Below, in pieces: positions 1,580 to 21,945 of a stretch of 23,586 nucleotides of DNA. Both the position numbers and the translations under genes were made by a program. The stretch is from a virus. How positions within the stretch are numbered: position 1 is the stretch's first letter; each line of letters opens with the position of its first letter. The notes under the pieces were generated by a model. The model was not told the DNA's origin. It searched no databases and was given only the letters and a program-made list of their open reading frames with translations. The DNA lies in the IMG/VR virus record IMGVR_UViG_3300034101_001412, positions 1 to 23,586 of that record; one strand, given 5' to 3'.

Positions 1580-2524
1580 TTACGCCACGCAGGACGAGAA
1601 GAAGTAGCCCATCTCAGAGGCAACAACCTTCTGAGCGTAGGCCATTTCGCCTTCGATCCGATCGGCCGCCAGGCGCTCTTCGCGCCACTTCTTGATACGC
1701 ATGCCGCCGATTGAACCGGTATAGCCGGACCAAGCGAAGGTATAACCCGCAGTCGGGGTCATGAGCGACGGAGAAGGAGCCGAGTAGCACAACAGGGAGT
1801 TTTTGCCGCCGATGAAGGCCTGAGTATCAGACTGACCTTCAGCAGACGAGGTGTAGACACCCTGCATGACGAGAACACGCTCGATATTGAAGAAGCGAGC
1901 AAGCATCGCCAGGTCGATAGAATCGGCACTGGTATACTTGAACTGGTCACGAATAGTGGCATTGTCACGGAGAGCAGAGAAAACCTGCGCGCCCATAACC
2001 ATGGTATTCGGCATGAAACCAGTGTTCTGCAGAATCGACATCTTGCCAGCTTCCACGTCCTTCAACGGGGTGGAGTTGGCCGCCGACCAAAGGGTGCTCG
2101 GGGTGGAATCGGTACCCCAAACGCCGGTAGTGAAGAACGAGGAAGCCCAAGTACGCTCGCGGCTAATCAGCAGCTTCTGAGTAACGTACTCAGTCGCGGC
2201 GCGATCAAGCGAGAGAACCGAGTCAGCGTTCGCACGCAACTGGTCGTCGACGTCTTTATGGAACGCCGTAGGAACAGCCGAATAGCTATCCGTGGTGACA
2301 CGGAAACCGCCGCCGGCGCTCTCAGACGCAGGGCCACGAACCTTCGCTTCGTCGCGGAGGAAATCGCCCTTATTGAACTTGTAGAACAGGTCCGATTGAC
2401 GTTCAACACCTACGGTGGGGAACACTTTGTCGGCCACAAAGGAATTGCCCGATTGCACATAAGCAACCGAGATGTTGGTAAGCGGCGCGTTAACGTGAAC
2501 GTCGCCCGGAGTGGGAGTAGCCAT
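1580..2524 (-). CDS. Major capsid protein
   Basis: This is a 314-residue protein, a usual size for an HK97-fold coat protein without a long propeptide. It opens MATPTPGDVHVNAPLTNISV and continues with FVADKVFPTVGVERQSDLFY, an N-arm layout seen in phage coat proteins. A central helix contains RERTWASSFFTTGVWGTD, and a late segment reads GGMRIKKWREERLAADRIEG. Cement and scaffold genes lie immediately upstream and connector genes downstream, the normal position for the coat gene. A strong terminator follows it directly, which fits a very highly expressed gene. The ribosome site is GAGGA nine bases before the ATG. The fold assignment is from recognition and context, not from a structure search. 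Confidence 0.88.
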   Translation of the reverse strand: MATPTPGDVHVNAPLTNISVAYVQSGNSFVADKVFPTVGVERQSDLFYKFNKGDFLRDEAKVRGPASESAGGGFRVTTDSYSAVPTAFHKDVDDQLRANADSVLSLDRAATEYVTQKLLISRERTWASSFFTTGVWGTDSTPSTLWSAANSTPLKDVEAGKMSILQNTGFMPNTMVMGAQVFSALRDNATIRDQFKYTSADSIDLAMLARFFNIERVLVMQGVYTSSAEGQSDTQAFIGGKNSLLCYSAPSPSLMTPTAGYTFAWSGYTGSIGGMRIKKWREERLAADRIEGEMAYAQKVVASEMGYFFSSCVA

Positions 2525-2934: not shown

Positions 2935-3870
2935 TTACCGACGAGCAGCAGCGTCAGCGTAAAGCTGCGGGTTCATATCCAAAGCCTTGGCAATCGCCTG
3001 AGGCTCAGTCATCAAGGGGTGAGCCTTGCGAATCTCAGCCGCAGCCTGGGCAACAGCACTGTCACCAGTCGGAACAGAACCAGAGTTGCCGACCTCAGAG
3101 AAGAGGCGGCCTTTCTTGATCTGCTCATGTTGCGCGCCGTAGCCTTTGATGATTTCAGCGTAAGCCGATTCATCGGACTTCTTGACAGTCATGAGGCTCG
3201 AGGCGAGAGTTTCGGCTTGGCCGACACCGCGAAGATCAGACTTAATAACCGACAACATCTTTTCGTCGGTCATGTCTTGAAGCTGCTTCGTCAGAAGGTC
3301 AATCTTGGCCGCTTGCGAGTCAAGGGTCTTGCGAACCTCGTCAGAAGCGGGAGAGAAAGCCTTGCGCAACGAGTCGCGCTTATCAGCGTTCATGATATAA
3401 TCAGCGCGCATCTCAGGGGTCATGCCCTTGATGATGGTCTGTTCCTCGACGGTCAGCTCGGCCTTGGCGAGCCGGTCGAGGAGAGCATTGGTATTCGCAT
3501 CGTGACCCATGTCGGTCTCTCCACTCGGTTCGCCGGCCAATCCCGCCGGCAGGGCCGCGGCCAACCCGGCCGCAAAACTCTTTTCAACAATGCCGGGGTC
3601 TTCGTCGTCACCGGCTACAGTCATGATGAGAGCCTGATAGAACTGTTCAAAGGTCTGGTCAAGGAGACCATCCTTATCTTGCTCTTTACTGTTGATAATG
3701 GAATCAACGCTCTCACGAAGAGCAAGGACGAGCTGCTGAATCTCAGCTACGCCGTCTTCAACTTCGCCGTCCATCGCGGCTTCAGCGTCGGCCTTGTTAA
3801 AAGAAACAGTCTGACCGTCAGACTTGGTCAATTGGACCAATTCGATGACTTCGTCACGCTCATCGCTCAT
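2935..3870 (-). CDS. Capsid scaffold / assembly protein
   Basis: This is a 311-residue, strongly acidic, mostly helical protein. The first 100 residues hold a long helix region (VAEIQQLVLALRESVDSIIN). The middle reads LTKQLQDMTDEKMLSVIKSD, and the tail QAIAKALDMNPQLYADAAAR resembles the 'a...e.nP.LYa.y' C-terminus of many phage scaffold proteins. It overlaps the preceding gene by ATGA and lies just before cement and coat genes, the place of a scaffold. It should guide coat assembly inside the procapsid and then be removed, here probably by the XkdF-like protease. It lacks the usual 'VSLVDRPAN' N-terminal segment, which is found instead on the separate gene just upstream. Confidence 0.75.
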   Translation of the reverse strand: MSDERDEVIELVQLTKSDGQTVSFNKADAEAAMDGEVEDGVAEIQQLVLALRESVDSIINSKEQDKDGLLDQTFEQFYQALIMTVAGDDEDPGIVEKSFAAGLAAALPAGLAGEPSGETDMGHDANTNALLDRLAKAELTVEEQTIIKGMTPEMRADYIMNADKRDSLRKAFSPASDEVRKTLDSQAAKIDLLTKQLQDMTDEKMLSVIKSDLRGVGQAETLASSLMTVKKSDESAYAEIIKGYGAQHEQIKKGRLFSEVGNSGSVPTGDSAVAQAAAEIRKAHPLMTEPQAIAKALDMNPQLYADAAARR

Positions 3871-4676
3871 CGTAGCACCCTTCGGCTTGAGAATTGATCG
3901 TAAAGCTGTCCTAGTTTGGATCCTGCTTGTCCTGACGGGCCTGAAAGGAAATAAGCTCCAATCCCTGCACCGGCAAGACCTGCAACTCCCCTTGAACCTG
4001 CAGCCCTTCGCAAAGTATGTAGGCCTAGTTTTACCCCACTTCCTACGACTTTGCCAGTAACTTTTCCCGCACTACTTCCTACAGCTCCGAACAGAGAACC
4101 GAGCCTATTTCCGAAAGAACTAACAGAACCTGCATTCTTTCCACGGAGAGTATCAAAAGCTCCGCCCAAGACCCGTCCAGAAACCTTTCCGGTCACAGAA
4201 CCTACGAATGATCCAACCTTTTGACCGAAGGCTGGGGCTGTTCTATTGATTAAAGATCCAAGACCGCGACTCCTTGAGCCTATGTAAGCTCCAGCGCCGG
4301 CTCCTACACCAGCACCAAACAGGGTTCCAAGTAGCGCGCCGGTTGGTTCTCCACGCGTTTCTTGGATTATCTGACTTGTTCTTGCGAGGTAAGGGGCGCT
4401 AGTGTCTTGGCGACTTCTGTGAGTCCTAGCCGTGTAAGAAGAAGAATCTTCGCTGTGAGACACTGGATCATCACCGATGATAAAACGTCCTGCGTTCTTG
4501 AGCTTACGTTTGATCCCAGACTTCTTCTTATCAGATTCGCCAGTTACACCGTCGCCGTCACCATCACGACCTGCGCGGCCGTCGGCTTTCATGAGAATGA
4601 CTTTGGCGTGTTGATTCGCAGGGCGATCGACAAGACTTACTTCATCAAGCTCGATGTCGCTAAGAAATGTCGGCAT
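3867..4676 (-). CDS. Scaffold-type N-terminal segment fused to a DGDGDG motif and glycine-zipper domain
   Basis: This protein has 269 residues from the ATG at 4676 (AAGGGA upstream). Residues 1-30 contain LSDIELDEVSLVDRPANQHA, a segment known at the N-terminus of phage XkdF-associated or scaffold proteins. At about 31-48 follows DGRAGRDGDGDG, an excalibur/EF-hand-like calcium loop. Next is a basic Ser/Arg linker, then from about 110 a long Gly/Ala-rich stretch (GALLGTLFGAGVGAGAGAYI and more) with small-xxx-small spacing, a glycine zipper likely to insert in or associate with membranes. The stop overlaps the scaffold start. It looks like an insertion that split a scaffold gene: the head of the scaffold is here and the body is in the next gene. 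A promoter lies 40-70 bases upstream. The function of the glycine part is unknown. Confidence 0.7.
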   Translation of the reverse strand: MPTFLSDIELDEVSLVDRPANQHAKVILMKADGRAGRDGDGDGVTGESDKKKSGIKRKLKNAGRFIIGDDPVSHSEDSSSYTARTHRSRQDTSAPYLARTSQIIQETRGEPTGALLGTLFGAGVGAGAGAYIGSRSRGLGSLINRTAPAFGQKVGSFVGSVTGKVSGRVLGGAFDTLRGKNAGSVSSFGNRLGSLFGAVGSSAGKVTGKVVGSGVKLGLHTLRRAAGSRGVAGLAGAGIGAYFLSGPSGQAGSKLGQLYDQFSSRRVLR

Positions 4677-4714
4677 TTTCAACAGTCCCTTGAATAAGAC
4701 GATATATTGATAAC

Positions 4715-4743
4715 ATCATACCCTGCGCGTGGTTCAGTGTAAA
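4715..4743 (-). promoter_or_regulatory. Sigma70-like promoter inside the head operon
   Basis: On the minus strand TTTACA (4743-4738) and TATGAT (4720-4715) are separated by exactly 17 bases. Each hexamer matches the consensus at five of six positions. It lies in the 73-base gap between the XkdF-like protease gene and the glycine-zipper/scaffold genes, one of the few gaps in the operon. The start point would be near 4708, leaving a leader of about 30 bases. It would add transcription for scaffold, cement and coat proteins. Confidence 0.6.
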
Positions 4744-4749
4744 CAGTCA

Positions 4750-5241
4750 TTATGCCATGTTTTTACGTTTCCCTCGGCCACCAATAGAGAATGCGCCAAG
4801 TTCTCCCTTTTTGACCCTGGCCCACGTCTCATCGTCGCTGATATGCACGCCAATGAGCCAGGCCGACTTCTTCAGGTCGATCCCTAGGGCCTTCTGTAGC
4901 TCTGGACGTAGGACAACAGACTCTACAACCTCTCCGATGCTTACAGGCTTGCCATCAGCACCCATCTTGTGCATGATCCCACCGACTCGACCACTCTTAA
5001 TGAACTTGTGGGCAACCTTTACGAGTTCGGTTACAGGGAGGATATCTCCTTGACGATCTACGACAGGTTGTCCGTCTTCATCGGCGACAGAGGCAAATCC
5101 ATAGACGACCCGTTCCTCATCATCTGCCTTTACGATTGGAACTTCCATGGAGAAGTCTGCACTCTTTGCAAAAGGGTGCTTCTTCTCACGTCCGCCGAAT
5201 AGAGTTTTACCTGCGCAGGTTCTTTGATATGGGTTAGACAT
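4750..5241 (-). CDS. Head maturation serine protease, XkdF-like
   Basis: This is a 163-residue protein with a near-perfect ribosome site (AGGAGG) and a TAATG overlap with the gene before. After a variable N-terminus it reads VVYGFASVADEDGQPVVDRQ, then GDILP, a conserved opening of the phage prohead protease fold. His91 (GGIMHKMG) and Ser152 (GAFSIGG) are in the positions expected of the catalytic His and Ser in this herpesvirus-assemblin-like family. Such proteases cut scaffold and other internal head proteins during maturation. The gene lies upstream of scaffold and coat, as in relatives. The likely substrates are the scaffold and perhaps the glycine-zipper proteins encoded on either side. 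Confidence 0.82.
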   Translation of the reverse strand: MSNPYQRTCAGKTLFGGREKKHPFAKSADFSMEVPIVKADDEERVVYGFASVADEDGQPVVDRQGDILPVTELVKVAHKFIKSGRVGGIMHKMGADGKPVSIGEVVESVVLRPELQKALGIDLKKSAWLIGVHISDDETWARVKKGELGAFSIGGRGKRKNMA

Positions 5242-6599
5242 TAACGGCCTCCTGAAATCTTGTTACCAGCGTACTGTCCAGCCCAAAGACCGGCCAGTGA
5301 AGCCGAAGCATCAGACGCTAAACGACCTTTGAAACCCAGTGAGTTTTTCGCGGCTACTTTGAGACCAGCTCTGCTGCCTGCAATGTACCCAGCCAAGCCT
5401 CCAATAGACTCGCCAAGTTTAGGTTTAGTCTCTTTGAACCCAGTCTTCATTCTACGCAAGGCCTGTCTAATGTCCTTGCTTTGAGCAGCAAACCCGATCC
5501 GGCGCCCAAGAGATTCCCCTGCAAGGCCACCTGCGACATTGCCAATAAGTCCGCCAGCGATGCTTCCAACGCCGGCGGTTGTTAGTGCTCCAGCAGCCGT
5601 TCCAGCTGCAGACCCAAGAGCACTTCCAATAACATTGCCAATATCTCCGACCCTATTGGCGCGATCTTTCTGGGCTTTCAACCCTTGAAGATAGGCTCGA
5701 CGGCGAGGATTCTTCGACGGTTTACCATTCTCATTGAAGATCCCGTCACCGTCGCCGTCTGTTCCTTTGGCAGATTTGTTTAGAACTAAACGAACCGCCC
5801 GCAAGGTATTAGTTATTCCAAATTGCTGGTTTCTGTAGAATCCAGACAAAGCTGTAACCTTCTTTGAACCTCTATTTCCAGCAAGCGTGCGAACACTCTC
5901 AGCCACAACTTCTGTTGGAGCACTTGTACGCAATTTATCGCGACGAGTGGCTTCATCTATCTTTTTAGACGAGGAAAGATATTCCGTATTTTGACCGTGA
6001 ACAGATCTTGATGTATCTACCGCATGCCCAAACTCGTGCAAAATAGATCCATCTTTAAGATTTCTCACAAAAAGCTTCTTTCCAGTCTCGAAGTATACCC
6101 CTGCGGGGGAATACGGGTTTTTGTCATCAAGTACCCCAAAGGCAGGGTTTCTTTTTTGTTCAAAAGAAACGTTGGATAAAAGTTTCTTTGTCTTGGGACC
6201 AAGTCTAACTTTACCTTTGAAAGCTCCGGTAACGTATTTACGAGCTTTCTCGTTAAATATTCCATCTTTATCCGCGTCACGCCCTGCCCGACCATCCTTG
6301 TAAATAGTCACGGCCTTCTTCATGCGTCGAATCATTCGACCTTTGCGCGAGGGTTCTCCCATAACAGAAGGAACGTGCGCTGAATCAGCCGTCGGGCAAT
6401 CCTTCGTAACGTTGATGATGATGCTTACGGGAGCCTCTGTCGGCTTAACGTGGCTCGGTCTAGAAGGATCTTCAGCCAGCTGCTCTGCCCGACCAGCGTC
6501 AATATGCGCCTGTTGAACGCGCAATAGACGGTTCTTTAGACGTTGAGCCTGTTTACGTTTAAGCTCTTCAAGTTTGAGTGTTATCGGTAAGTCAAGCAT
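5241..6599 (-). CDS. Virion-associated putative zinc metalloprotease with calcium-loop motifs and glycine-zipper domain
   Basis: This is a 452-residue multidomain protein. Residues 1-45 form a basic helix (LKLEELKRKQAQRLKNRLLR). Residues 101-117 hold DGRAGRDADKDGIFNE, an excalibur/EF-hand-like calcium loop. Residues about 120-270 contain HEFGH at 188-192 followed by AVD and, 37 residues later, TEVVAES (Glu230, Glu234). This is the HExxH plus distant Glu pattern of gluzincin proteases, most like the lethal-factor-type families. A second loop, DGDGDGIFNE, is at 281-290. Residues about 320-450 are Gly/Ala-rich with GxxxG/GxxxA repeats (GSIAGGLIGNVAGGLAG). It lies between minor head and protease genes, so it is probably packaged in or on the head. 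Zinc binding and the substrate are inferred. Confidence 0.72.
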   Translation of the reverse strand: MLDLPITLKLEELKRKQAQRLKNRLLRVQQAHIDAGRAEQLAEDPSRPSHVKPTEAPVSIIINVTKDCPTADSAHVPSVMGEPSRKGRMIRRMKKAVTIYKDGRAGRDADKDGIFNEKARKYVTGAFKGKVRLGPKTKKLLSNVSFEQKRNPAFGVLDDKNPYSPAGVYFETGKKLFVRNLKDGSILHEFGHAVDTSRSVHGQNTEYLSSSKKIDEATRRDKLRTSAPTEVVAESVRTLAGNRGSKKVTALSGFYRNQQFGITNTLRAVRLVLNKSAKGTDGDGDGIFNENGKPSKNPRRRAYLQGLKAQKDRANRVGDIGNVIGSALGSAAGTAAGALTTAGVGSIAGGLIGNVAGGLAGESLGRRIGFAAQSKDIRQALRRMKTGFKETKPKLGESIGGLAGYIAGSRAGLKVAAKNSLGFKGRLASDASASLAGLWAGQYAGNKISGGR

Positions 6600-8003
6600 T
6601 TACCATTGCCCTTGCCAAGTGATTGACGCGTAAGCCGCCGTTGCGGTCCCGGTCACTGTCCGCGCCGCGATGGTCAATGTGTCCGGCGTCGTACCGTCGA
6701 AGCTATTGACCAAGGGCCGGTCAGAGAATGCCGTATTGCTCAGATTGCCAACCTTGGCCGAATTACTAGAACTGGCAAAAGTATCGCGGTCAATAACCAC
6801 TCCGCTCCCAAGAGATACTGCCGTCGCAGTCACGTCAAATTGCCCCATAGCATTGGCGTTCACAGCAGTCCAACTTGCTCCTGTTAGCGTGGCATTCCAG
6901 ATAAGTTGGTACTTGACTATAACAGACGTGTTATTATCGACATAAAGCGAAAGCGCCTTTGGGATAATCCAACCTCGGTTTGTAATCCCGCCGAACGTTG
7001 GTCCTGGCCTAATACTCAAAATTGGTTTGAGAGTTGTCGTCAGGCCAATGCCGACATCATTTTCAGCCGAATATTGAATGCCTATCGGCTCAAACCCGCC
7101 TTCGCTTGACACCTGACAACAAATTGCGTCCATCGTCGCAACTGCGCCAGCGGTGCCAGTGTTTACAATCTCCCATCTGACAGGGAGATTGGGGGTTGCC
7201 ATGTATGGCTGGTCTGATGTTAGATTGCTGTGATGGAAAAAATGAACGTAGTAAAGAAGACCATTGATTTCAAAGCCACAACGCACCGTACCGACGCCAA
7301 GATACTGAAGGTCCACAATAAATATTTGACCTTTTGTCATGTCCAAGGTCAGGCCACTTGGCCCACTTCCATTCATTGGATCTACGTTCCAACTAGCTTG
7401 GGCGACTGAAGTATCAACTATTGAGCCTGAAACACTTGAGCGCAGCACAAGCGCAATTCCCGCACTTGTATAGTTCAGAAAAATTCCATTGCTGTCGTCG
7501 AAATACCCCATGCGCTTGGCCACACCAGACGCCGGAACCGCCCCAGGAATGGCGGTGACGGACATTTGCAAGCTCTTGCCAGGGTTATACCGGGCATATA
7601 CTCGCGATTGCTGCACCGACCGCGCACCGCTTGCCGTCCCGCCGGTGGCCAGCGTCACGCGCTTTGTCGTCGTGCTATGCGTAACTGTGCCAGTTCCTGT
7701 GGTAGAAGTCACAAAATTGAAGGGGTTGATTTTGTATTCGTTGAAGCCGGAGATAAGCGTGAATGGCTCAGATATCCGCAGCCGGTTAAAGGCGTCGAAA
7801 GACATATCGACGTTGCGAGTTACGAGACCGTAAGTAGACGGAGAAACCAATGTATTTGCTATGCTAGCCGCTGTTCCTGAATCATCAGTAATGGTCGAAT
7901 TCACACGGGGAACCCCGTTAAATACAGGCCACGGATACGGGACCCCGTTACTGTCGATCAGCGATATTGCTCGTTGGAACATGCTATCATCGTTAAAAGG
8001 CAC
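6600..8003 (-). CDS. Large beta-rich virion protein (467 aa)
   Basis: I start it at the GTG at 8003 because AGGAGA lies seven bases upstream; the longer frame to 8042 would overlap the previous gene and lacks such a site. The protein contains MSFDAFNRLRISEPFTLISG near residue 80. This is the 'DAFgRLRvSepfTlf' motif I know from structural proteins of many environmental phages. The rest is rich in Thr, Ser, Gly and Asn with alternating strands and ends in YASITWQGQW. It has no recognisable enzyme motif. Placement between the minor head gene and the metalloprotease is unusual for a fibre- or spike-like protein. It may decorate the head or portal vertex. Adjacent genes abut it (TAAATG at the downstream end). 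Confidence 0.7.
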   Translation of the reverse strand: MPFNDDSMFQRAISLIDSNGVPYPWPVFNGVPRVNSTITDDSGTAASIANTLVSPSTYGLVTRNVDMSFDAFNRLRISEPFTLISGFNEYKINPFNFVTSTTGTGTVTHSTTTKRVTLATGGTASGARSVQQSRVYARYNPGKSLQMSVTAIPGAVPASGVAKRMGYFDDSNGIFLNYTSAGIALVLRSSVSGSIVDTSVAQASWNVDPMNGSGPSGLTLDMTKGQIFIVDLQYLGVGTVRCGFEINGLLYYVHFFHHSNLTSDQPYMATPNLPVRWEIVNTGTAGAVATMDAICCQVSSEGGFEPIGIQYSAENDVGIGLTTTLKPILSIRPGPTFGGITNRGWIIPKALSLYVDNNTSVIVKYQLIWNATLTGASWTAVNANAMGQFDVTATAVSLGSGVVIDRDTFASSSNSAKVGNLSNTAFSDRPLVNSFDGTTPDTLTIAARTVTGTATAAYASITWQGQW

Positions 8004-8014
8004 AGCAATCTCTC

Positions 8015-8992
8015 CTAGACGACACGAGCCGCGATTGTGCAACGACAGTTGATAGTCATGCTAGCTTCAGCGTTTGGATCTCCTGGAAGCATGATCGATC
8101 TGCCGTCAGGATATCTAAAAGCCTCTCCTATTGCCACACCTTCTTCGTTTAGCTTAGGGATCATCCTGTGCTCGTCTCTTACACGAGCATCTTTAGCGTG
8201 GACCCAGAAGCGCTTGAGTTGCAACCCCTGTTCTCTGAGCTTTTCGTCCATCTGCTCATAAGCCTCGTTCTGTCCCGCATTGACTGCGCGCAATGTCTCA
8301 GTCCTGGCGACGGTTAAGGCTCGATGGTTGGCCATCCTTGTAGAATATTGACCAACAAGCTTGTCTATCGTCTCTTGCGATAGCGGAATTCCCGTTTGAA
8401 CTGAATCTTTGACCTTGGCGTCAAAACGTCGGTCTCTGAGCTTGCGTTCTGTCGTCAGACTGCCGATAGTCCAGCCGATCGCTTTCGGATTCGCCGTCTC
8501 TAACGCCGTTCTATAGTTCATCACGGCTTGAGCCTGCCTAGTCGTCAACGGAAGCAACTCACGAATGCCCGTCGCTATCTTATCAGGACCATATCCGTTC
8601 TTTATACCGTTCGATATAGCCAATTGCACGACCTGCGCCGCTTGCTGCGTTATCTCAACGATGAACCTATTCTGAAAGTCCTTAGCGCGCCTAACAGACT
8701 TGTCATCAACTCGGTTAAAATCTACAGAGAACAGAAGCTTTTTGATCTTATTCTCAGGGATCTTGATTCCGTCATTCGCTGTCAAGATGGCAGACTTCAC
8801 GCGCAAGTCTATGAGCTTCCCTGACACTTGAGCAATGAACCTTGGGAGATTGCGATAGATCAAACCTTGGATGTCCTGTAATGACGCGTTACTTGGAATA
8901 GTAAAGGAGGCGAAAGCCTCCCTTAAACTACCAACTATAAGCCTCTCGTGGCTGGAGGCTAGCGTCTCAGGATCAACCTTCGAACTTGGCAT
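8015..8992 (-). CDS. Minor head protein (SPP1 gp7 / Mu F type)
   Basis: This is a 325-residue protein whose start overlaps the portal gene end by 20 bases. The N-terminal half is helical. The C-terminal half has the SPP1 gp7/Mu gpF signature: ARTET (229-233) with LRAVNAGQNEAY, then RFWVHAKDARVRDEHR (to 276), a PDGRSIMLPGDP segment, and INCRC (314-318) near the end. Proteins of this family bind the portal, are present in the head in few copies, and in SPP1 affect DNA ejection. The order portal then gp7-like gene is standard. All motifs are present and the length is usual, so it looks intact. Confidence 0.9.
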   Translation of the reverse strand: MPSSKVDPETLASSHERLIVGSLREAFASFTIPSNASLQDIQGLIYRNLPRFIAQVSGKLIDLRVKSAILTANDGIKIPENKIKKLLFSVDFNRVDDKSVRRAKDFQNRFIVEITQQAAQVVQLAISNGIKNGYGPDKIATGIRELLPLTTRQAQAVMNYRTALETANPKAIGWTIGSLTTERKLRDRRFDAKVKDSVQTGIPLSQETIDKLVGQYSTRMANHRALTVARTETLRAVNAGQNEAYEQMDEKLREQGLQLKRFWVHAKDARVRDEHRMIPKLNEEGVAIGEAFRYPDGRSIMLPGDPNAEASMTINCRCTIAARVV

Positions 8993-20352: not shown

Positions 20353-20813
20353 TTTCCTGCCTCCCAAAAGCACGTCTGGTTAACCCGCCCGGCCTTCGGG
20401 AGCTTATGCTTCCACGGCTGGGGGTTGCGCCCGCAGACGTCAAAATGTGTTGCCTTGAAAGGTGCGGGAACGAGGTCCGTATAAGCCAGCGCGGCGGCGT
20501 CAACCGACGCTTTCCAGGCTTTCATATCGTCAATCTTGTTGCGCTTTGCATACCATGGGTATTGCTTGGGTTTTGCGATCACCTCGCAAACCGAGTTTCC
20601 GCCAAATGGCGTGCCAATCCTGGCGAGCGTCGCATGGGCAATTGCTGTCGCCTCCGGCATGTCGCGCCCACGCGTCTCATGATAAACGACCTTGGCAAGA
20701 CACTTAATCTCTTGCGGGTCGGCCAAGTGTAGTGCCGTCGTGCCCTCGCCGTCCGGGCCGACAAGGCGCATGGCGAATAGCGCGGCAAGGATGGTGGCAT
20801 CGATGGGGGTCAT
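20349..20813 (-). CDS. SleB-type cell wall hydrolase, copy 2
   Basis: This protein has 154 residues from the ATG at 20813 (GGAG eight bases upstream). It contains CLAKVVYHETRGRDMPEATA (Glu46 is the expected catalytic acid), IAHATLARIG, SVCEVIAKPKQYPWY and FKATHFDVCG. These are the blocks of the Hydrolase_2/SleB family, which cuts peptidoglycan glycan strands. It is a likely endolysin or virion muralytic enzyme. A short hydrophobic N-terminus (ATILAALFAMRLVG) might anchor or export it. It differs from the copy at 21481-21945 at 11 of 154 positions by my count. Two almost identical lysins in tandem are unusual. Confidence 0.88.
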   Translation of the reverse strand: MTPIDATILAALFAMRLVGPDGEGTTALHLADPQEIKCLAKVVYHETRGRDMPEATAIAHATLARIGTPFGGNSVCEVIAKPKQYPWYAKRNKIDDMKAWKASVDAAALAYTDLVPAPFKATHFDVCGRNPQPWKHKLPKAGRVNQTCFWEAGK

Positions 20814-21484
20814 GGGTTCGTCTCCATTACCGCCCGGCACGCGGACCTAACGACCGCCGCGTAGGTGCTACCCCGGCCGTACTTCTCCCTAATTGCTGCG
20901 AGGGCTTCTTTCTCAGGCCCCCAGAAGCAGCCGAGCTGCACCATGGCATGAGTGCCGTGGTTGACTGCATAGCCGATGCGGCCCTGATCACCCACAGGAC
21001 CGAACGAGATAACCCCCTCGGCCCCGTGCAGGTCAGCCTTGGTCAGGCTGGCCCCGTGCAGGTTGGCCTCGATCAGATTGGCCCCGGTCAGATCGGCCTC
21101 GGTCAGACGGGCCCCGTGCAGGTTGGCCCCGAACAGGTCGGCGCCTTGCAGGTTGGCCCCGTGCAGGTTGGCCTCGGTCAGATCGGCCTTGGTCAGATTG
21201 GCCCCGAACAGGTAGGCCTCGCGCAGGTCGGCGCCTTGCAGGTTGGCCCCGGCCAGGTAGGCGCCTTGCAGGTTGGCCCTGGACAGGTCGGCGCCGGTCA
21301 GGAGGGCCCCGCACAGGTTGGCCCTGGACAGGAGGGCCTCGGTCAGGTTGGCCTTGCTCAGGTTGGCCCCGTACAGGTTGGCCTTGGTCAGGTTGGCCTT
21401 GGTCAGGTTGGCCCTCGCTCCGCCTTCGGCTACCAACCAGAGCGTATGCTGATTGAGCACTTCGTCCAGTTCTTCTTGTGTCAT
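20810..21484 (-). CDS. Pentapeptide-repeat protein, long copy
   Basis: This protein has 224 residues from the ATG at 21484 (GGGAGG upstream). It starts MTQEELDEVLNQHTLWLVAE, then has about 26 pentapeptides (ARANL TKANL TKANL YGANL and so on), and ends with the same FGPVGDQGRIGYAVNHGTHA domain as its paralogue. The repeat number is the main difference between copies, as expected from slippage in a 15-base repeat. It lies between two hydrolase copies and overlaps both by four bases. The role is unknown; an immunity, gyrase-binding or structural function would all be guesses. Confidence 0.88.
   Translation of the reverse strand: MTQEELDEVLNQHTLWLVAEGGARANLTKANLTKANLYGANLSKANLTEALLSRANLCGALLTGADLSRANLQGAYLAGANLQGADLREAYLFGANLTKADLTEANLHGANLQGADLFGANLHGARLTEADLTGANLIEANLHGASLTKADLHGAEGVISFGPVGDQGRIGYAVNHGTHAMVQLGCFWGPEKEALAAIREKYGRGSTYAAVVRSACRAVMETNP
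21029..21418. repeat. 15-base tandem coding repeats (pentapeptide array, long)
   Basis: There are about 26 units of 15 bases within the long pentapeptide gene. Many units differ by one to three bases, and some neighbouring blocks are nearly identical, which suggests recent expansion. Confidence 0.85.
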
Positions 21485-21945
21485 TTTCCTGCCTCCCAAA
21501 AACATGTCTGGTTAACCCGCCCGGCCTTCGGGAGCTTCTTTTTCCACGGCTGGGGATTGCGTCCACAAATGTCAAAATGTGTCGCAGCGAAAGGCGCTGG
21601 CACGAGGTCCGTATAGGCCAGCGCGGCGGCCTCAACTGACGCTTTCCACGCCTTCAGATCGTCAATCTGGTGGCGCTTTTTATACCAAGGATATTGCTTA
21701 GGTTTGGCGATCACTTCGCAAACGGAGTTTCCCCCGAAGTGCGTGCCAATCCTGGCGAGCGTCGCATGGGCAATTGCTGTCGCCTCCGGCATGTCGCGAC
21801 CTCGCGTCTCATGATAGACGACTTTGGCCAGACACTTAATCTCTTGTGGGTCAGTCAGGTGCAGCGCCGTCGTGCCATTGCCGTCCGGGCCGACAAGGCG
21901 CATGGCGAATAGCGCGGCAAGGATTGTGGCGTCGATTGGGGTCAT
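21481..21945 (-). CDS. SleB-type cell wall hydrolase, copy 1
   Basis: This is a 154-residue protein; the ATG at 21945 overlaps the previous stop. It has the same blocks as copy 2: CLAKVVYHETRG with Glu46, SVCEVIAKPKQYPWY, and FAATHFDICG. It is followed by its own pentapeptide gene, so the pair [hydrolase-pentapeptide] is repeated in tandem. Replacements relative to copy 2 are mostly on variable positions (KRHQIDDL against KRNKIDDM), so both copies look functional. The short N-terminal hydrophobic stretch may act as a signal anchor. Confidence 0.88.
   Translation of the reverse strand: MTPIDATILAALFAMRLVGPDGNGTTALHLTDPQEIKCLAKVVYHETRGRDMPEATAIAHATLARIGTHFGGNSVCEVIAKPKQYPWYKKRHQIDDLKAWKASVEAAALAYTDLVPAPFAATHFDICGRNPQPWKKKLPKAGRVNQTCFWEAGK

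What the first reader, a model, noticed from the sequence alone, without database searches (positions are those of the whole stretch)
3867..6599. Repeated 'calcium loop + basic linker + glycine zipper' cassette in two head-assembly genes
Two genes flanking the XkdF-like protease share one architecture: DGRAGRDxDxDG or DGDGDGIFNE loops, a short basic linker, then 100 or more residues of Gly/Ala-rich GxxxG segments. The sequences outside the motifs are unrelated, so this looks like a mobile or repeatedly inserted cassette in proteins that end up inside or on the head. Glycine zippers can insert in membranes. A cargo carried in the head, freed by the head protease and delivered with DNA is a testable idea. 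I know of no described system of this kind.
Basis: partly seen in the sequence, partly recalled or inferred. Interest (0 to 1): 0.8.

Follow-up and report, generated by a model that had tools for sequence, protein, structure and literature searches.

The report
Glycine-zipper effector modules in phage heads
Two genes beside a phage's head protease carry the same inserted module, a short calcium-type loop followed by a long glycine-rich membrane-type stretch, and an unrelated phage carries the same module around a different enzyme, suggesting a reusable part that helps proteins packed in the phage head cross the host membrane.

Summary
Both genes flanking the XkdF protease carry DGRAGRDxDxDG-type loops. 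Each ends in 140-160 residues of GxxxG repeats, with 12 GxxxGxxxG triplets each against about 2.1 and 1.2 expected. The larger protein also holds a zinc-peptidase-like motif (HEFGHAVD). The smaller one is the N-terminal leader of the scaffold gene with the cassette inserted: in 30 relatives one intact gene aligns to both that leader and the following gene, p311. None of 29 syntenic relatives carries the cassette. A scan of IMG/VR found one other real occurrence, in an unrelated phage and again in two neighbouring genes at XkdF. There the order loop, enzyme, KSA(K/R)GTDGDxDG loop, glycine zipper recurs, but the enzyme is an inorganic pyrophosphatase of the polyvalent-protein type. So this is a modular insertion in head-operon cargo proteins, next to a slot that in relatives holds Zeta toxin, GNAT and HNH domains. 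Best reading: polyvalent-type effectors carried in the head, with the zipper helping them across the host membrane as in the T6SS effector Tde1. Packaging, cleavage, calcium binding and membrane activity are inferred. No sign of autonomous mobility was found.

The parts
3867..4682 (-). gz271: scaffold-gene leader + Ca-type loop + glycine zipper (271 aa)
   Evidence: leader aligned to scaffold genes of 30 relatives
4584..4682 (-). leader FLSDIELDEVSLVDRPANQHAKVILMKA (start codon TTG as listed; an ATG lies two codons on)
   Evidence: same leader begins intact scaffold genes of relatives, e.g. L117 KLEDLEVEEVSLVDRPANKHAKVVLTK
4536..4583 (-). loop DGRAGRDGDGDGVTGE
3870..4352 (-). glycine-zipper region of gz271 (aa 111-271)
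   Evidence: weak PF05433/PF13441/PF13488 below cut-off
2935..3870 (-). p311: body of the scaffold-like protein, split from its leader; ATGA overlap with gz271
4750..5241 (-). XkdF-type head maturation protease (Peptidase_S78_2)
   Evidence: E 3.8e-21
5241..6599 (-). zn452: loop - zincin-like region - loop - glycine zipper
6249..6296 (-). loop 1 DGRAGRDADKDGIFNE
   Evidence: 13/16 identical to the loop of the L207 704-aa protein
5775..6248 (-). putative zincin-type metallopeptidase region; HEFGH at 6024-6038 followed by Asp at +3, PTEVVAES at 5895-5918 as possible third ligand
   Evidence: sequence motif only; no family hit, fold prediction uninformative
5730..5765 (-). loop 2 GTDGDGDGIFNE, preceded by KSAK
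   Evidence: matches KSARGTDGDHDGMIHD before the second zipper of the L207 704-aa protein
5244..5663 (-). glycine-zipper region of zn452 (aa 313-452)
   Evidence: PF13488 17.7 bits, below cut-off 25
6600..8042 (-). virion structural protein (phrog_1645)
   Evidence: 298 bits
8015..8992 (-). MuF head morphogenesis protein
   Evidence: PF04233 E 1.7e-13
1580..2524 (-). major capsid protein (phrog_1005 / Phage_cap_E)

Best explanation
The two genes encode cargo proteins of the phage head of the 'polyvalent protein' type, made by inserting a modular cassette (Excalibur-like DxDxDGxx[N/G/H][E/D] loop, spacer, glycine zipper) into the variable slot around the XkdF protease. In zn452 the cassette is attached to a zincin-like peptidase. 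In gz271 it is attached to the assembly leader of the scaffold protein. Proposed steps: (1) the leader or neighbouring scaffold brings the protein into the prohead (inferred); (2) the XkdF protease may cut at hydrophobic-Lys-Ala/Ser junctions just before the module, as HK97 protease cuts K103/S104 (inferred); (3) the protein leaves the head with the DNA (inferred from gene neighbourhood and the polyvalent-protein precedent); (4) the glycine zipper inserts in the host membrane and lets the attached enzyme cross, as the GxxxG repeats of the T6SS effector Tde1 do (inferred by analogy); calcium outside the cytoplasm may fold the loops and trigger this (speculative). Shown here: module anatomy, insertion into a gene that is whole in relatives, recurrence with a swapped enzyme in an unrelated phage, and co-location with XkdF in every real case found.
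For: Same plan in an unrelated phage (G001/L207): 704-aa gene = DGRAGRDADGDGKLNE, glycine zipper, InPase PF18823 (E 5e-17), KSARGTDGDHDGMIHD, glycine zipper; the neighbouring 1080-aa XkdF fusion = KADGRKGRDGDGDGKLNE + Gly/Ala stretch, then KADWDESKHPRDDNGRF + Gly/Ala stretch. It was found by loop pattern alone over IMG/VR, so its position at XkdF is an independent observation. The InPase domain has tblastn matches in 467 phage records, several annotated as DarB-like, portal or minor head proteins. Relatives' slots carry Zeta toxin, GNAT, HNH and a weak PARP match. 30 relatives have one gene aligning to both the gz271 leader and p311. Zipper periodicity is far beyond composition. A loop+zipper survey of all loci then held returned only these two phages. 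HK97 K103/S104: PMC10275583. Tde1: PMC10240207.
Against: No experimental or proteomic proof that the products are in virions. The zinc-peptidase call rests on motifs only; no HMM supports it. The Lys junction test is weak in the window itself (gz271 1 site, p=0.24; zn452 none). Hydropathy peaks are modest (1.25-1.27 over 21 residues), marginal for ordinary transmembrane helices. Gly/Ala stretches in the L207 1080-aa protein show no significant GxxxG periodicity except the C-terminal one. Only two phages carry the exact cassette. DarB-like proteins of other phages have Gly/Ala-rich patches, but without significant periodicity.
Confidence: 0.5

Rival explanations
1. DNA-ejection channel: the zippers form the membrane channel or plug through which the genome passes (a T7 gp14/gp16-like role), not an effector translocator.
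For: Ejection proteins of podophages are internal and insert in membranes (PMC8954989); zn452's zipper also hits a tape-measure family weakly (phrog_23574, E 0.0043).
Against: Relatives with the same head operon lack the zippers altogether, so a channel needed for every infection is unlikely to be made by them; the loop and zipper sit beside swapped enzymes.
Confidence: 0.15
2. Assembly role: the glycine-rich modules are internal scaffold or inner-capsid binding parts, or anchor proheads at the host membrane during assembly; no injection takes place.
For: gz271 carries the scaffold gene's leader and precedes the scaffold body with an ATGA overlap; P1 DarA/Hdf line the inner head surface (PMC12810830).
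Against: Absent from all 29 syntenic relatives; attached to enzymatic domains that have no obvious assembly role.
Confidence: 0.2
3. Low-complexity linker drift: Gly/Ala-rich spacers between domains, without membrane function, joined at short linker motifs.
For: W.E..HPR...GRF linkers recur in many cargo proteins and are rarely followed by zippers (1 of 84), so the linkers are a general device.
Against: GxxxGxxxG excess of 5-10 fold over shuffled composition in both window genes and both L207 704-aa zippers; the same enzyme-loop-zipper order occurs in two phages.
Confidence: 0.12

Closest known systems
Phage polyvalent proteins (DarB/DdrB, MuF fusions; Iyer et al. 2017, PMC5512222)
   Same: Effector-type enzymatic domains encoded among head genes; zincin-like HExxH domains are the commonest domain of this class, and the InPase domain of the sister phage matches DarB-like families; swappable domains.
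   Different: The Ca-type loop + glycine-zipper module is not mentioned in that paper ('glycine', 'transmembrane' and 'calcium' do not occur in it); here the proteins are short and built around the XkdF/scaffold genes.
Glycine-zipper effectors Tde1 (T6SS, PMC10240207) and TelE (T7SS, PMC10434224)
   Same: Tandem GxxxG repeats joined to, or forming, an antibacterial effector; membrane permeabilisation shown for those.
   Different: Different delivery route; no sequence relation shown; membrane activity untested here.
Excalibur / EF-hand-like DxDxDG calcium loops (PF05901)
   Same: DxDxDGxx[N/G/H][E/D] spacing like DxDxDGxxCE.
   Different: No Cys; only E 0.34 to PF05901; always paired with a zipper or enzyme in head genes.
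T7 ejection proteins gp14/gp16
   Same: Internal virion proteins with membrane-inserting parts.
   Different: No homology found; this is a variable accessory, not a conserved core component.

Membership tests
Phage polyvalent proteins | encoded with virion/head genes | tested here: met
   between MuF and capsid genes, beside XkdF
Phage polyvalent proteins | recognised effector or enzymatic domains, several per protein | tested here: inconclusive
   window: only HEFGHAVD...PTEVVAES motifs, no HMM hit; sister-phage protein: InPase E 5e-17
Phage polyvalent proteins | packaged and injected | not testable with these tools
   needs virion proteomics
Zincin metallopeptidase | HExxH, downstream Glu ligand, phage-type Asp 3 residues after HExxH | tested here: inconclusive
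   HEFGH-A-V-D and E in PTEVVAES present by sequence; no family or fold support. The Asp+3 feature is described in PMC5512222
Glycine zipper (PF13488/PF05433/PF13441) | Pfam gathering score | tested here: not met
   14.9-17.7 bits vs cut-offs 24.2-28.9
Glycine zipper (motif sense) | tandem GxxxGxxxG beyond composition | tested here: met
   12 vs 2.1 and 12 vs 1.2, 0 of 2000 shuffles
Excalibur calcium-binding domain PF05901 | DxDxDGxxCE with Cys, family score | tested here: not met
   no Cys; E 0.34, 11.7 bits vs 22
Mobile DNA element | repeated DNA copies, terminal repeats or integration gene | tested here: not met
   no long direct repeats in 3867-6599; loops 29/48 identical at DNA level
XkdF protease substrate | cleavage at hydrophobic-Lys-Ala/Ser junctions | not testable with these tools
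   junction enriched in L207 1080-aa protein (6 vs 1.1, p 0.001) but not in the window cargo genes; K-rich junction before W.E..HPR...GRF linkers 28/73 vs 10%

The most novel reading that the evidence does not exclude
A portable 'calcium loop + glycine zipper' delivery module used by phages to move head-packaged enzymes across the host membrane: processed by the head protease, held inactive in the head, switched on by calcium outside the cytoplasm, and swapped between enzymes (peptidase, pyrophosphatase) across unrelated phages.
Probability: 0.2. Interest if true: 0.85.

Novelty: new variant of a known kind. Interest (0 to 1): 0.6.

Why it matters
How phage-carried effector proteins get from the head into the host cytoplasm is poorly understood for long-tailed phages. 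If the glycine zipper is the translocation part, it would link phage cargo proteins to the glycine-zipper translocation mechanism proposed for T6SS effectors and give a sequence handle (DGRAGRDxDxDG / GTDGDxDG loop plus GxxxG repeats near XkdF) for finding new virion-delivered effectors. It also shows concretely how a cargo module can be inserted behind the scaffold gene's leader peptide.

Tried and rejected
Pattern and tblastn searches with the two whole proteins found no relatives in IMG/VR or 50,697 phage records. Scan of 84,980 GTDB species for DGR[A/K..]GRDxDxDG: 18 stretches, all read as off-frame, GC-rich chance or TSP3-type proteins, none phage-like by inspection. Broad RAGRDxDxDG scan: mostly chance frames plus a RAGRDGDGDGRYSE family in another phage group, no zipper seen. 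GTDGDxDG scan: only the already known sister phage is relevant. AlphaFold without an alignment: pLDDT 43.6 and 39.1, uninformative, so no fold search was run. Search of 385 genomes of one bacterial class for PF14550: four hits, no cassette, though the fetched loci are only about 3 kb. Idea that HPR...GRF linkers generally precede zippers: rejected, 1 of 84. Idea that DarB-like proteins generally carry true zippers: not supported, periodicity not significant in 7. Frame error splitting gz271/p311: judged unlikely, the genes meet in a clean ATGA overlap. L169 loop match: chance, in a 17-aa frame. Not resolved: L113/L124 each have a 544-aa ORF with 6 GxxxGxxxG in the slot, but no loop.
Full report
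What is there. The window is a 23.6-kb virus record whose head genes run on the minus strand: terminase, Mu-type portal, MuF, a virion structural protein (phrog_1645), zn452, XkdF protease, gz271, p311, cement protein, capsid. The loops and glycine regions are real. Three of the four DxDxDG-type sites in all six frames lie in these two genes. The zipper periodicity exceeds shuffled composition 5-10 fold. Apart from the loops the two proteins are unrelated and the loop DNAs have diverged (29/48), so there was no recent duplication.

zn452 has the order loop, region with HEFGHAVD (HExxH plus Asp three residues on) and PTEVVAES, loop, zipper. That motif set resembles what Iyer et al. describe for phage-type zincin domains of polyvalent proteins (PMC5512222), but no HMM or fold supports it here, so it stays a motif-level inference. 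gz271 starts with FLSDIELDEVSLVDRPANQHAKVILMKAD, the leader of the scaffold-like gene in relatives. In 30 relatives one single gene aligns to both this leader and p311. The simplest reading is that a cassette was inserted behind the leader and the scaffold body continues from a new start with an ATGA overlap. 'Scaffold-like' itself is inferred from position and coiled-coil character, not from a curated family hit.

Presence and absence. Eighty capsid relatives (47-69% identity) and 43 portal relatives were fetched. In the 29 loci that hold both XkdF and capsid, none carries the loop+zipper combination. The slot does vary: it holds a Zeta toxin domain fused to XkdF (L004), GNAT acetyltransferases, HNH and a weak PARP match.

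The second phage. Scanning IMG/VR for the loop alone returned one further real occurrence, a 24.4-kb virus record. It has the loop in two neighbouring genes, both at its XkdF protease. The 704-aa gene repeats the plan of zn452 closely, DGRAGRDADGDGKLNE ... enzyme ... KSARGTDGDHDGMIHD ... zipper, but its enzyme is an inorganic pyrophosphatase (PF18823, E 5e-17) of the type found in DarB-like and portal/MuF polyvalent proteins. It also has an additional zipper before the enzyme. The 1080-aa XkdF fusion has a loop followed by a Gly/Ala stretch, and then the same position is taken by another linker, KADWDESKHPRDDNGRF, again followed by a Gly/Ala stretch. The closest annotated relative of this protease (Brevundimonas phage Polewnik, 50%) lacks the whole insertion. 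The basic linker of the window is not conserved in this phage.

Linkers and junctions. It is preceded by K plus 0-3 small or acidic residues in 28 of 73 distinct cases against 10% at other Trp in the same frames. The calcium-type loops sit behind similar hydrophobic-Lys-Ala/Ser junctions in L207 (6 vs 1.1 expected in the 1080-aa protein) and in gz271 (LMKADGRAGRD). HK97 protease cuts K103/S104 (PMC10275583), so these could be processing sites. This is an inference: in the window's cargo genes the count is not significant.

Most likely working. Head-carried, polyvalent-type effector proteins with a glycine zipper that acts on membranes. The nearest tested analogue is Tde1, whose N-terminal GxxxG repeats permeabilise the membrane and are needed for delivery of its DNase into prey (PMC10240207). 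TelE is a zipper toxin of T7SS (PMC10434224). Calcium gating is speculative. I put 0.5 on the head-cargo and membrane-translocation reading as a whole.

Novelty. Virion-borne polyvalent effectors are known, and glycine-zipper effectors are known. A loop+zipper module joined to swapped enzymes at XkdF was not found in the papers searched (the Iyer paper has no occurrence of 'glycine', 'transmembrane' or 'calcium'; searches turned up no such phage system, in a library that lacks most subscription papers). Hence a new variant of a known kind, supported by two independent phages and open to direct tests.

Noticed in passing
window:19843-20840 and 20810-21945 (-): Tandem duplication of a two-gene unit: a cell-wall-hydrolase-like protein (MTPIDATILAALFAMRLVGPDG...) followed by a pentapeptide-repeat protein; mean column identity is 84% and the copies differ in the number of pentapeptide repeats. 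Functions judged by eye.
   Followed up: partly
window:6600-8042 (-): The head operon holds a phrog_1645 virion structural protein related to cyanomyophage and HMO-2011 structural proteins (33-39% identity), an unexpected mosaic piece between MuF and zn452.
   Followed up: partly
L215-L294 (IMG/VR loci): W.E..HPR...GRF is a widespread linker motif in phage proteins, up to three per protein (L239), often preceded by K[A/G/S][D/E]; it may mark processing junctions of head proteases.
   Followed up: partly
L126, L172, L176, L187: A separate small phage protein family carries RAGRDGDGDGRYSEARGRDARGRYTS-like sequence (near a helicase gene in L126 and L187), same loop letters, no zipper seen.
   Followed up: no
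L004:7070-8620: XkdF protease fused to a Zeta-toxin kinase domain (PF06414 E 1.7e-19) via an ESQHPR-type linker.
   Followed up: no
window:23112-23546 (-): Possible VRR-NUC-type nuclease (FPGAERLTDITKGGVPDALLLADGNCGLVEFKWKDSW); judged by eye only.
   Followed up: no
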